Virus record (IMG/VR): IMGVR_UViG_3300024262_000104
Location: 1 to 38,068 of that record
DNA from: a virus
Direction: 5' to 3' (one strand)
DNA: 38,068 nucleotides
Every line of letters starts with the position of its first letter. The stretch's first letter is position 1. Positions 29,189-37,978 of the stretch are shown here, piece after piece. Position numbers and translations under genes: made by a program. The notes beneath the pieces were generated by a model. It worked only from the letters and a program-made list of their open reading frames with translations. It did no database searches and was not told the origin of the DNA.

Positions 29189-29782
29189 ATGATACATATT
29201 AAATTATTTGAACAATTTAAAAATTCACGTCTAACCGAAAAAATAAATATTAACGATGTTGCTATTTTTCCAGGAAGATTTCAGCCATTTCATAATGGAC
29301 ATATTGCTGCATTGAAAAAAACTTCAATGACATTTGGTGTTCCAGTAATCCCAATACAAATTTTATCAGTTAGAGATGAATCACCATTCCCCCCTGAGTT
29401 GTTAAATAAAATTGGTAAAGCAGTACAAAATGAATTTAGTTCTTGGATGGCAGACTATTTTTTATACCCTCAAGATAGAAAGACAGTTATACCACAAATG
29501 GTTCAATTTTTAAGAGATAAAGATTATTACCCAATTGCAATGGGAGCAGGGTCAGATAGAATTAAATCATACGAATCTCAAGTTAAATATTTAAATTCTG
29601 ATAAATCAGATGTACCAATGAATCAACAATTTAAATTAGAAATGGTTGATGAACGAATTGTTGATGGTCCTTCAGGAACAAAGGTAAGAGAAGCAATACA
29701 GAATAATGACTACGAATTATTTAAAACTTTAGTACCAAAATCAGTACATAAATTTTACAATGATCTTAAAAAATATTTATAA
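29189..29782 (+). CDS. Tagged HxGH nucleotidylyltransferase (NMNAT-like)
   Basis: A 197-residue protein. The leader MIHIKLFEQFKNSRLTE (site LTE17/K) is followed at once by VAIFPGRFQPFHNGHIA, the GRFQPFHxGH signature of nicotinamide-nucleotide adenylyltransferases and related cytidylyltransferases (H35, H38). PSGTKVREAI at 161-170 is the ISSTxxR-like nucleotide-binding motif. Both catalytic signatures look complete, so it is probably active. NMN adenylyltransferase activity (NAD synthesis) is the best guess; pantetheine or glycerol-type substrates are not excluded. The leader suggests it is carried in the head. It shares its start pattern with the neighbour upstream and abuts the next gene by one codon. 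Confidence 0.75.
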   Translation: MIHIKLFEQFKNSRLTEKININDVAIFPGRFQPFHNGHIAALKKTSMTFGVPVIPIQILSVRDESPFPPELLNKIGKAVQNEFSSWMADYFLYPQDRKTVIPQMVQFLRDKDYYPIAMGAGSDRIKSYESQVKYLNSDKSDVPMNQQFKLEMVDERIVDGPSGTKVREAIQNNDYELFKTLVPKSVHKFYNDLKKYL

Positions 29783-33924: not shown

Positions 33925-34938
33925 ATGAAATATATAAAAACTTTTAATGAATTAATTACTGAGAAAAAACTTGCGGTAGTTAATATATCAACAGCAGCAA
34001 GAGTACGAAATGCAATATTTGATGCAATGTCAGATGGTATTTTATCAGAAGAAGAACTTAATAACATTTTAGGAGAAATCAAAGCTCACAAATCTTGGGT
34101 AAAAAGAAATATTAAATTATTTAATATAACTGAAGATGGTGAAGGTAATAAGCAATATTCATTATCAAGATATGGTAAAAAGATACAAAATGTAATTATA
34201 AAAAATGGAACTATAAATGAATCTTTATATGTACCACATAAAAATCAAGGTGTGAAAGATGTTAATATTTTTATTGGTAGATTTCAACCATTTACATTAA
34301 ATCATATAAAGATTTTTGAACAATTACACAAAAAGAATAAGTTACCTGTAGTTGTTTTATTGTTAAATAGTTCAACGCAAGATATAAATTCCAGACCATT
34401 TGAAGAAGCAACACAGCAATTAATGTTTGGTAAACTAATGGGACAATATTCATTTTTGGAATCTATGTTTATGATTAATGATAGTTCAATTGATACTATT
34501 TTCGCAACACTACGACCTACATATGAACCTATTATTTGGGGATTTACCTCAGATAAAACAAAACGATACAATTCAATGATAAATGATGAGTCATATCGTT
34601 TAGAACTTGATGTCAATGATAACTTTGAAGGATTTGAATTGGACGATATTGTTGATACTTCAATTAAAGTTAGGACTGCTTTAATAATTGATGACGAGGA
34701 ATCATTCAAATTACTTGTACCTGAAAGTTTACATACAATGTACTTAACATTACAAGACGAATTAGCTGAACTTTCTGAAAATGCTAATTTAAATCCTAAT
34801 ATGAATGTTAATAATATGGGTCCAGTAACATTTCCTAGCAACCCTGAGTCAATGAATAATTTTTATAACCAAAACATCGGTAGTGGCGATTATCCATTTG
34901 ATGATGAAGAAGATGATGAAGATGAAGTCAAAAATTAA
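33925..34938 (+). CDS. Tagged second nucleotidylyltransferase, HxGH variant
   Basis: A 337-residue protein. The leader MKYIKTFNELITE (ITE13/K) is followed by a 90-residue helical region, then a second cleavage-type site INE99/S just before the enzyme domain. INIFIGRFQPFTLNHIKIF (from about residue 114) is the GRFQPFHxGH signature with TLNH in place of HxGH, so the first His and the Gly are lost and activity may be altered. DTSIKVRTAL is the ISSTxxR counterpart. The C-terminus is very acidic (DDEEDDEDEVKN). It is a distant paralogue of the 29189 gene with an added N-terminal domain. Removal of 99 residues would leave just the enzyme. Confidence 0.65.
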   Translation: MKYIKTFNELITEKKLAVVNISTAARVRNAIFDAMSDGILSEEELNNILGEIKAHKSWVKRNIKLFNITEDGEGNKQYSLSRYGKKIQNVIIKNGTINESLYVPHKNQGVKDVNIFIGRFQPFTLNHIKIFEQLHKKNKLPVVVLLLNSSTQDINSRPFEEATQQLMFGKLMGQYSFLESMFMINDSSIDTIFATLRPTYEPIIWGFTSDKTKRYNSMINDESYRLELDVNDNFEGFELDDIVDTSIKVRTALIIDDEESFKLLVPESLHTMYLTLQDELAELSENANLNPNMNVNNMGPVTFPSNPESMNNFYNQNIGSGDYPFDDEEDDEDEVKN

Positions 34939-35564: not shown

Positions 35565-36971
35565 ATGCTTTTAGATATATCACAAGAAGGGAGAGATTTA
35601 ACAGTTTCATATTTTGACACTGATGGTAAAACACAATTTAAATTATTTGAACTTACATCAGATGAAATGTTTAATTGGAATGTATGTGAAGTGAATGATA
35701 AGAAGGCTGATACTATTATGAAGAATTGGGATGGTAGACCAGTTAAAAAGGTTGCATCAAAATATCTTAATAAATATAGAGTTATTGAATATATTGATAA
35801 GTTACCACAATTTCACAAAGATACAATATTTGGATACACATTTCCCCGTACATATTTTGTGGATATTGAAGTTGAAGTTACTGATGAATTTCCAGAACCT
35901 AGTAGAGCAGATAATCAAATTACAGCAATATGTATAGTTACACCAAATCGTCAATGTATTGTTCTAGCAACTAAGGAACTTGATAGAGAATCACAATTAG
36001 TAATCCAAAAAAATATTGATGAACATTTTAAACATATAAATGATAAATTTACGTTTATATATAAAAAGTTTGAAACTGAATATGATTTACTTTATACATT
36101 TTTAGTTGAATTTGTTAAGAAATTTCCAATGATGACTGGTTGGAATTTTATAAAATTTGATTGGCAATATATTGTTAATCGTGCAAAAAAACTAGGTATA
36201 GATATTAATATATCTTCTCCAACAGGAAAGACATTTGGTAAACATAAATTCCCTGAACATGTAGGTGTAATGGATTATCTTGATATTTATTCAAAGTGGG
36301 ATAGAACTATTGATATAAAAGAAAATTTTAAATTAGATACTGTTGGTGAAGCAGTATTAGGCATTAAAAAAGTTAAATACGAAGGTACATTACAAGATTT
36401 ATTTGAAAGAAATTATTCTAAATATATTTTTTATAATGTAATTGATACTGCTCTTGTTTATTTGATTCATCAAAAAATCAAAACAATGGACATTGCCCTT
36501 ACAATTGCTCATATGAGTCAAATAAGTGTATTTAAAGCAGGTTCACCAGTTGCAATTACCGAAGCATTACTTGCAAAAGAATTTTTAAGTAGAGATTTAG
36601 TGATGGCAGTTGACCCAAAAGCAAAAGCATCCAAACGCGAACAATTTGAAGGCGCTTTTGTTAAAGAACCGATTTTAGGTATGCACAATGCAGTCGTTGC
36701 ATTTGACTTTGCTTCGCTATACCCATCAATAATGAGACAAATGAATGTGTCACCAGAATCATTTATGAAAAAGGTAAAACCTGAACATCGTAAAAAGGAA
36801 ATTAGTTCAGACACAATTGTTGCAGTGACGGGGGCAGTTTATAGTACAAAAAATTCAATATTAAAATCTATATTAACAACACTATATTCCCAACGTAAAG
36901 AATATAAAAAGAAATCATTTGAATATCAACAACGTGCATATGATTTAGAACAAAAAATAAAAAATTCATGA
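35565..36971 (+). CDS. 43A: DNA polymerase family B, N-terminal half (split gp43)
   Basis: A 468-residue protein (T4 gp43 is 898). The proofreading exonuclease is complete: D100 and E102 (FVDIEVEV), D199 (GWNFIKFDWQYI), D294 (YNVIDTALVY). Polymerase motif A is present at D381 (FDFASLYPSIMRQ). The chain then ends after a finger helix (LYSQRKEYKKKSFEYQQRAY), before motif B (Kx3NSxYG) and motif C (DTDS). The stop overlaps the nrdB start as ATGA, so it is a genuine gene end rather than a sequencing slip. The C-terminal half must be encoded elsewhere. Split gp43A/gp43B genes are known, as I recall, in some Aeromonas T4-like phages, and the halves form one enzyme. Confidence 0.88.
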   Translation: MLLDISQEGRDLTVSYFDTDGKTQFKLFELTSDEMFNWNVCEVNDKKADTIMKNWDGRPVKKVASKYLNKYRVIEYIDKLPQFHKDTIFGYTFPRTYFVDIEVEVTDEFPEPSRADNQITAICIVTPNRQCIVLATKELDRESQLVIQKNIDEHFKHINDKFTFIYKKFETEYDLLYTFLVEFVKKFPMMTGWNFIKFDWQYIVNRAKKLGIDINISSPTGKTFGKHKFPEHVGVMDYLDIYSKWDRTIDIKENFKLDTVGEAVLGIKKVKYEGTLQDLFERNYSKYIFYNVIDTALVYLIHQKIKTMDIALTIAHMSQISVFKAGSPVAITEALLAKEFLSRDLVMAVDPKAKASKREQFEGAFVKEPILGMHNAVVAFDFASLYPSIMRQMNVSPESFMKKVKPEHRKKEISSDTIVAVTGAVYSTKNSILKSILTTLYSQRKEYKKKSFEYQQRAYDLEQKIKNS

Positions 36972-37978
36972 GTAAATTATTTGAAGAGAGAATAGCATAC
37001 AAGCCATTTGAATATCCTGAATATGATTTAGATGGTTGGATGCCACAAAGTCAAGCACATTGGTTACATACAGAAATACCAATGCAGGGTGATATTAAAG
37101 ATTGGAAAGAAAATTTACAAGAACATGAAAAAAATTTAGTTGGGAATATTTTATTAGGTTTTGCTCAAACTGAATGTGCTGTTTCTGATTATTGGACAAC
37201 AATGGTGACAAAATGGTTTCCAAAACATGAAATTAAAGAAATGGCAATTTCATTTGGGTATTTTGAAACAATTCATGCTAGAGCTTATTCTTACTTGAAT
37301 GAAACATTAGGTCTAGAGGATTTTGAGGGTTTTTTACATGAACCTTCAATGTCAGAACGATTTGAATTTTTGATGAAGACAAAGGCTGATTATAATCATA
37401 TCATTTTATCAAATGATAACAATGCAAGAAAGGATGTTGCAAAAAGTTTAGCAATATTTTCAGCGTTTGCAGAAGGTGTAAGTTTATATAGTTCATTTGC
37501 TGTTTTATATTCATTTCAACTTAGAAATTTATTAAAGGGTATAGGTCAACAAATGAAATGGTCAGTTAGAGATGAATCTTTACATTCTAAAATGGGTTGT
37601 CAATTGTTTAGACATTTGTGTGAAGAATATCCTGATATATTGGATGAATGTAAAGATTCAATATATGAAGCTGCGAATGTAATGGTTGAAATGGAGCATA
37701 AGTATATTGATAAAATTTTTGAAATGGGAGATTTGCAAAATCTATCAGCAAAAGATCTTAAAAATTTTATTTATAGAAGAGCTAATGAAAAACTAATTGA
37801 ATTGAATTTAAAACCAATATTTGTATATGATATTAAATCTGCGGATAACTTAAACTGGTTTTACCATCTATCAGGTGGTGTTATGCACACAGATTTCTTT
37901 GCGATTAGACCTACTGATTATGCAAAAGCAGGTGAAAATGACGACTGGGATGATATTTGGGAAACTGAAAATAAATAA
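36968..37978 (+). CDS. nrdB: Ribonucleotide reductase class I small subunit
   Basis: A 336-residue protein with all diiron ligands visible: E69, E100 and H103 (FETIHARAY), E169, E203 and H206 (RDESLHSK). The radical tyrosine is Y107. The C-terminus is acidic (DDWDDIWETENK), as required for docking to NrdA. It supplies the radical for conversion of ribonucleotides to deoxyribonucleotides during replication. Its start shares ATGA with the end of the polymerase fragment. The large subunit is not in the window. The family assignment is firm; NrdB versus NrdF cannot be separated by motif alone. Confidence 0.92.
   Translation: MSKLFEERIAYKPFEYPEYDLDGWMPQSQAHWLHTEIPMQGDIKDWKENLQEHEKNLVGNILLGFAQTECAVSDYWTTMVTKWFPKHEIKEMAISFGYFETIHARAYSYLNETLGLEDFEGFLHEPSMSERFEFLMKTKADYNHIILSNDNNARKDVAKSLAIFSAFAEGVSLYSSFAVLYSFQLRNLLKGIGQQMKWSVRDESLHSKMGCQLFRHLCEEYPDILDECKDSIYEAANVMVEMEHKYIDKIFEMGDLQNLSAKDLKNFIYRRANEKLIELNLKPIFVYDIKSADNLNWFYHLSGGVMHTDFFAIRPTDYAKAGENDDWDDIWETENK

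What the first reader, a model, noticed from the sequence alone, without database searches (positions are those of the whole stretch)
35565..37978. Split DNA polymerase with nrdB attached by ATGA
The polymerase gene keeps the whole exonuclease and motif A but ends in the fingers before motifs B and C, and nrdB starts within its stop codon. The break is at the same general place as in the split gp43A/gp43B genes I recall from Aeromonas T4-like phages, so it may be an independent or ancient split. The other half is outside this window.
Basis: partly seen in the sequence, partly recalled or inferred. Interest (0 to 1): 0.66.

Follow-up and report, generated by a model that had tools for sequence, protein, structure and literature searches.

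The report
Half of a two-gene phage replicase
This phage makes its DNA-copying enzyme from two separate genes, and the window holds only the front half; every close relative surveyed has the same break, which arose separately from the similar split known in Aeromonas and Acinetobacter T4-like phages, but a split replicase is itself a known kind of thing.

Summary
Confirmed. Window 35565-36971 (468 aa) is an intact N-terminal half of a T4-type family B DNA polymerase: N-domain, 3'-5' exonuclease, palm motif A and first fingers helix. It ends at T4 gp43 residue ~503 (RB69 ~506), the fingers tip. The window is a whole 38-kb viral contig that stops 90 bp after nrdB, so the missing half cannot be in it. 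In relatives it exists: 19 of 20 contigs carry a separate C-half (motifs B and C), 7-17 kb downstream; the 20th ends too soon. All 100 related N-half loci (60 distinct sequences) end at the same point. Both halves are under purifying selection and co-diverge (Mantel r 0.96). No PolA or PolIII-alpha was found in nine relatives, and no full-length PolB. One origin shared with the Aeromonas/Acinetobacter gp43A/B split is rejected (AU p 7.5e-5): an independent, old fission at the same spot. The ATGA overlap with nrdB is real but peculiar to this contig. Some relatives (LR756500, Lak phages, Tenacibaculum PTm1, two IMG/VR contigs) cut the C-half again at motif C with a split intein, giving a three-gene polymerase. 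Split PolB and PolB split inteins are already known kinds.

The parts
35565..36971 (+). polN: N-terminal half of a bipartite family B DNA polymerase (468 aa, complete gene, TGA stop)
   Evidence: phrog_2062 over positions 5-497 of 502, E 4.6e-88; model spans RB69 gp43 residues 4-506, Z about 30
35862..36446 (+). 3'-5' exonuclease core: DIE (aa 100-102), NFIKFDW (aa 194-200), YNVID (aa 290-294)
   Evidence: invariant columns; Pfam DNA_pol_B_exo1
36705..36728 (+). palm motif A, DFASLYPS (aa 381-388)
   Evidence: aligned to T4 SLYPS at 411
36858..36968 (+). first fingers helix (aa 432-467) and the C-terminal end of the half; the break
   Evidence: helix H432-467 in the model; end maps to T4 ~503 / RB69 ~506
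36968..36971 (+). ATGA: stop of polN overlaps start of nrdB; peculiar to this contig
   Evidence: not conserved in relatives
36968..37978 (+). nrdB, ribonucleotide reductase small subunit; syntenic neighbour, not part of the polymerase

Best explanation
The gene makes the N-terminal half of the replicative DNA polymerase of a large phage of the same lineage as huge phage LR756500, the Lak phages, PAU and PTm1. A second gene, missing here only because the assembly ends, makes the C-terminal half (second fingers helix, motif B, motif C palm, thumb, C-terminal tail). The two chains fold together without a peptide bond: the fingers hairpin closes from one helix of each chain, and the palm forms from the motif A part of polN and the motif C part of polC, giving one proofreading polymerase. 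Shown: intact catalytic residues in each half, conserved break, presence of the C-half in relatives, co-divergence, purifying selection, no other recognised polymerase in relatives. Inferred: presence of the C-half in this phage, non-covalent assembly, activity. The fission is old within this lineage and arose independently of the gp43A/gp43B split of Aeromonas and Acinetobacter phages; the fingers tip is a repeatedly used break point.
For: C-half found in 19 of 20 close relatives' contigs (the 20th ends about 1 kb after the N-half) and in nine huge or jumbo phage records. All 100 N-half loci, 60 distinct sequences, stop at the same place. N and C distances correlate, Mantel r 0.96, 0 of 5000 permutations as high. 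Median dN/dS 0.095 (N) and 0.059 (C). No full-length PolB beside the halves and no PolA or PolIII-alpha in nine records. Structure: polN spans RB69 4-506, Z 30; the C-half of a relative spans RB69 about 582-898, Z 18 but rmsd 15. In the separate models the low-confidence parts are the motif A stretch of polN (355-385) and the motif B and KKKY stretches of the C-half (17-52, 171-199), the parts that should need the partner. No intein at the break: the N-half ends 4-18 residues after the shared profile, leaving no room. Precedent: Aeromonas phage 25 gp43A and gp43B co-purify and are active (PMC2988022 citing Petrov 2010). Independence of origin.
Against: The C-half was not seen in this contig, so its presence here is inference. 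No complex was predicted or measured. The separate models rest on shallow alignments (17 and 24 sequences), so low-pLDDT regions are only suggestive. Two fused polymerases (L185, L212) nest inside the lineage and a single split clade without fused members is rejected (p 4.5e-4), so the number of fissions and re-fusions inside the lineage is unsettled; those rows have long branches.
Confidence: 0.9

Rival explanations
1. The ORF is a decaying remnant or a truncated gene, and another polymerase replicates the genome.
For: The contig alone shows no second half.
Against: Every catalytic residue kept; dN/dS about 0.09; 60 distinct relatives with the same end; no full-length PolB, PolA or PolIII-alpha in relatives.
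Confidence: 0.03
2. The halves are joined covalently after translation or at RNA level at the fingers (split intein, trans-spliced intron), so the mature enzyme is one chain.
For: Relatives do use a split intein, but at motif C. Aeromonas phage 25 gp43B carries a group I intron.
Against: No intein sequence at the polN end or the polC start; each half has its own stop and start, and the genes lie from 1 kb to over 100 kb apart, in some genomes on opposite strands.
Confidence: 0.03
3. polN acts alone as a 3'-5' exonuclease and the C-half has another job.
For: polN holds a complete exonuclease domain.
Against: It also keeps motif A (D381, SLYPS) and the fingers helix under the same constraint, which an exonuclease does not need; N and C co-diverge; no other polymerase seen.
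Confidence: 0.02
4. Assembly artefact: a frameshift or chimera broke one gene.
For: The window is a metagenomic contig.
Against: Same break in 100 loci from many samples and in the isolates PAU, MA9V-2 and PTm1.
Confidence: 0.01

Closest known systems
gp43A/gp43B split PolB of Aeromonas phages 25 and 44RR and Acinetobacter Twarogvirinae (e.g. Kimel)
   Same: T4-type PolB broken at the fingers tip (T4 515 and 501 versus 503 here); exo plus motif A in one half, motifs B and C in the other. Phage 25 halves co-purify and are active.
   Different: Different branch of the tree, one origin rejected. There the genes are near neighbours parted by a homing endonuclease or small ORFs; here they are usually 3-17 kb and in some genomes over 100 kb apart.
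DNA polymerase genes of Sphingomonas phage PAU (gp105/gp110), Chryseobacterium phages MA9V-1/MA9V-2, Tenacibaculum phages PTm1/PTm5
   Same: Same larger clade, same break; annotated as two or three DNA polymerase genes (PMC10537231 lists two ORFs).
   Different: About 29-31% identity for PAU and MA9V; PTm1/PTm5 have in addition a split intein at motif C.
PHROG families 2062 (502 positions) and 1918 (382 positions)
   Same: Existing families of half-length DNA polymerases: polN matches 2062, the relatives' C-half matches 1918.
   Different: They are sequence clusters, not a described bipartite enzyme.
PolB split inteins ('fractured genes'; Aes123 PolB1, CP21 PolB1, LCGC14 PolB2; phage MIJ3)
   Same: Relatives L008/L069, L019/L079, LR756500, Lak and PTm1 carry a split intein in PolB at YxDTD/S, with Ser at both splice junctions (PMC12707363, PMC6892783).
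   Different: A separate break from the one in the window; whether this phage has it is unknown.

Membership tests
Family B DNA polymerase (T4 gp43 type) | Exonuclease motifs I-III and palm motif A | tested here: met
Family B DNA polymerase (T4 gp43 type) | Motif B and motif C (YxDTDS) in the same genome | tested here: inconclusive
   absent from this 38-kb contig, present in relatives with more sequence
Bipartite PolB of the gp43A/gp43B kind | Break at the fingers tip between motifs A and B | tested here: met
   T4 residue 503, RB69 506
Bipartite PolB of the gp43A/gp43B kind | Common descent of the split with the Aeromonas/Acinetobacter split | tested here: not met
   one clade rejected, delta lnL 881, AU p 7.5e-5
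Bipartite PolB of the gp43A/gp43B kind | Halves associate and polymerise | not testable with these tools
   reported for phage 25 (PMC2988022)
Huge-phage split PolB lineage (PAU, Lak, LR7565xx) | polN groups with these in a tree | tested here: met
   100/100 clade of 40 rows
PolB with split intein at motif C | IntN after YxDTD and IntC before S in this phage | not tested
   the C-half lies outside the contig; neighbour row L019 has it, with weak support for that pairing (96/38)

The most novel reading that the evidence does not exclude
This phage, like its neighbour in the tree (L019), builds its only replicase from three genes: polN joined without a bond at the fingers, and two pieces of the C-half welded through the catalytic DTD/S motif by a split intein, so that replication can start only after protein trans-splicing.
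Probability: 0.25. Interest if true: 0.5.

Novelty: new member of a known kind. Interest (0 to 1): 0.42.

Why it matters
It shows that breaking the main replicase at the fingers tip is not a curiosity of a few T4-like phages: it happened several times, and in one large lineage, including Lak phages and genomes over 600 kb, it is the usual form. In that lineage a PolB search with full-length filters would call each half a fragment. The series fused enzyme, two pieces, cis mini-intein, three pieces with a nuclease gene is natural material for asking how an essential enzyme tolerates fission and whether two-gene dosage controls replication.

Tried and rejected
Sliding clamp for the 250-aa gene just upstream of polC: suspected from its place beside the polymerase, but no PHROG, Pfam or PDB profile match, and hhalign to T4 gp45 gives probability 1%, so left unnamed. 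ATGA coupling to nrdB as part of the system: dropped, not conserved. One split clade for all phages: rejected. One split clade in the huge-phage lineage without fused members: rejected, with long-branch caution. L204 and L237 as further fingers-tip splits: their breaks map elsewhere (T4 ~604 and ~431). Genome-contig scan with the N-half alignment: only PolB at 23-30% identity, none a close relative. PolA and PolIII-alpha in relatives: none; the minimal split PolIII-alpha that PMC7824862 reports for group 2.2 jumbo phages did not match the Pfam model, so its absence is not shown. Prediction of the two-chain complex was not possible with the tools.

Full report
What is in the window. The window is the whole of a 38,068-base virus record. 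ORF 35565-36971 encodes 468 aa and ends in TGA; nrdB (36968-37978) starts inside that stop. The contig ends 90 bases after nrdB. Pfam finds the PolB exonuclease domain and only the first third of the polymerase domain; PHROG 2062, a family of half-length DNA polymerases, is matched nearly end to end. The closest solved structures by sequence are RB69 and T4 gp43. The AlphaFold2 model (mean pLDDT 83) overlays RB69 residues 4-506 with Z about 30. Its last element is a single 36-residue helix, the first helix of the fingers.

Where the break lies. In an alignment with T4 gp43 the half ends at residue 503, between motif A (411) and motif B (561). Acinetobacter phage Kimel breaks at 501, Aeromonas phage 25 at 515, PAU and Lak at 518, and the T4-like IMG/VR loci L202, L208 and L240 at 524-526.

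The other half. The contig has no C-half, but relatives do. Twenty-one IMG/VR loci encode the N-half at 53-74% identity. A PolB search of twenty of their contigs and of eleven phage records shows, besides the N-half, a separate motif B/C gene in 19 of the 20 contigs (the 20th ends about 1 kb after the N-half) and in nine huge or jumbo phage records; MaF61 is fused and Kimel is the known Acinetobacter split. The C-half is 372 aa in the nearest relatives, begins about 20 residues before motif B, has YIDTDS and KKKY, and ends in SLF. It lies 12-17 kb downstream on the same strand in most of the nearest contigs, about 7 kb in two, 1-6 kb in many more distant ones, and over 100 kb away, on the opposite strand, in several 540-735-kb genomes. 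PHROG 1918 is the matching family.

Signs that the two work as a pair. All 100 related N-half loci (60 distinct sequences) end within 4-18 residues of the same profile position. Median dN/dS is 0.095 for N-halves and 0.059 for C-halves. N and C distances over 34 phages correlate at r 0.96. Seven large phage records and two long contigs have no PolA or PolIII-alpha match, and no record other than the fused MaF61 has a full-length PolB. Predicted alone, each half is least certain where the partner should complete it; the alignments are shallow, so this is only a hint.

Independent origin. In a 69-row tree of N plus C, the window sits in a clade of 40 rows with huge phages and phages of Bacteroidota (37 split, 3 fused), apart from the T4-like clade (22 fused, 7 split) at 100/100 support. 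PAU belongs to this picture because its host was reassigned to Sphingobacterium (PMC3738902). Holding all split rows together costs 881 log-likelihood units (p 7.5e-5). Well-supported branches force at least six changes between fused and split. Inside the window's clade L185 and L212 are fused and nest among split rows; a split clade without fused members is rejected too (p 4.5e-4), but these are long branches, and repeated fission cannot be told from re-fusion.

A second break in some relatives. In L069, L079, LR756500 (L083), Lak (L084, L085) and PTm1 (L331) the C-half is itself two genes: the first ends in an intein N-part right after YxDTD, the second opens with an intein C-part ending HN before S. 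L077 has the same intein in one piece of about 160 aa. Between the parts lie a homing-endonuclease-like gene in L083 (PHROG 3339), other ORFs in L079 and L084, an annotated VSR endonuclease in PTm1, and only 82 bp in L069. PTm1 is already annotated 'intein-containing split DNA polymerase precursor', and cysteine-less PolB split inteins are used as tools (PMC12707363). Whether the window's phage has this is unknown.

The ATGA. nrdB follows polN in most of the close relatives, but after a gap of about 50-105 bp. The overlap here looks like a local shortening of the spacer; polN is not shortened by it.

Known or new. Split gp43 is known from Aeromonas phages, where the halves co-purify and polymerise (PMC2988022); 'split DNA polymerase' appears in Acinetobacter records and in papers on MIJ3 and OM43 phages. 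I found no paper that describes the conserved, independent split of this huge-phage lineage, but the library is partial, and the PAU, MA9V and PTm1 records already list the separate genes. Hence a new member of a known kind.

Noticed in passing
L064 2940-14657 (close relative, between polN and polC): About 12 kb of sugar-nucleotide and polysaccharide genes (DAHP_synth_1, Polysacc_synt_2, DegT aminotransferase, hexapeptide transferase, HAD, NTP_transferase, epimerase) sit between the two polymerase halves; in distant relatives the gap holds only nrdA/B, an Hc1 gene and a 250-aa gene.
   Followed up: partly
L064 14704-15453; L119 9054-9815; L107 5885-6640: A conserved ~250-aa gene directly upstream of polC, sometimes overlapping its start, matches no Pfam, PHROG or PDB profile well. 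A divergent sliding clamp is a guess.
   Followed up: partly
L119 8770-8952 and similar genes in L107, L116, L129, L064: A 57-60 aa histone H1-like Hc1 protein (Pfam E 3e-25 for L119) lies between the polymerase halves in many of these phages.
   Followed up: no
C-terminal ends of N-halves: L028, L030, L331, L330, L202, L208, L240: An RG[IL] motif near the end of the N-half occurs in split polymerases of both clades and in none of 33 fused ones; convergent end-cap or chance is open.
   Followed up: partly
L332 8989-9968 (Tenacibaculum phage PTm5): The IntC-polC2 gene, one CDS in PTm1, is annotated as two in PTm5, perhaps a frameshift or a sequencing error.
   Followed up: no
L237, L204: Two more T4-like polymerases appear split away from the fingers tip (about T4 431 and 604).
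   Followed up: partly
window 29189-29782 and 33925-34938: Two genes with nucleotidyltransferase-type GRFQPF motifs; the second is CTP_transf_like by Pfam.
   Followed up: no
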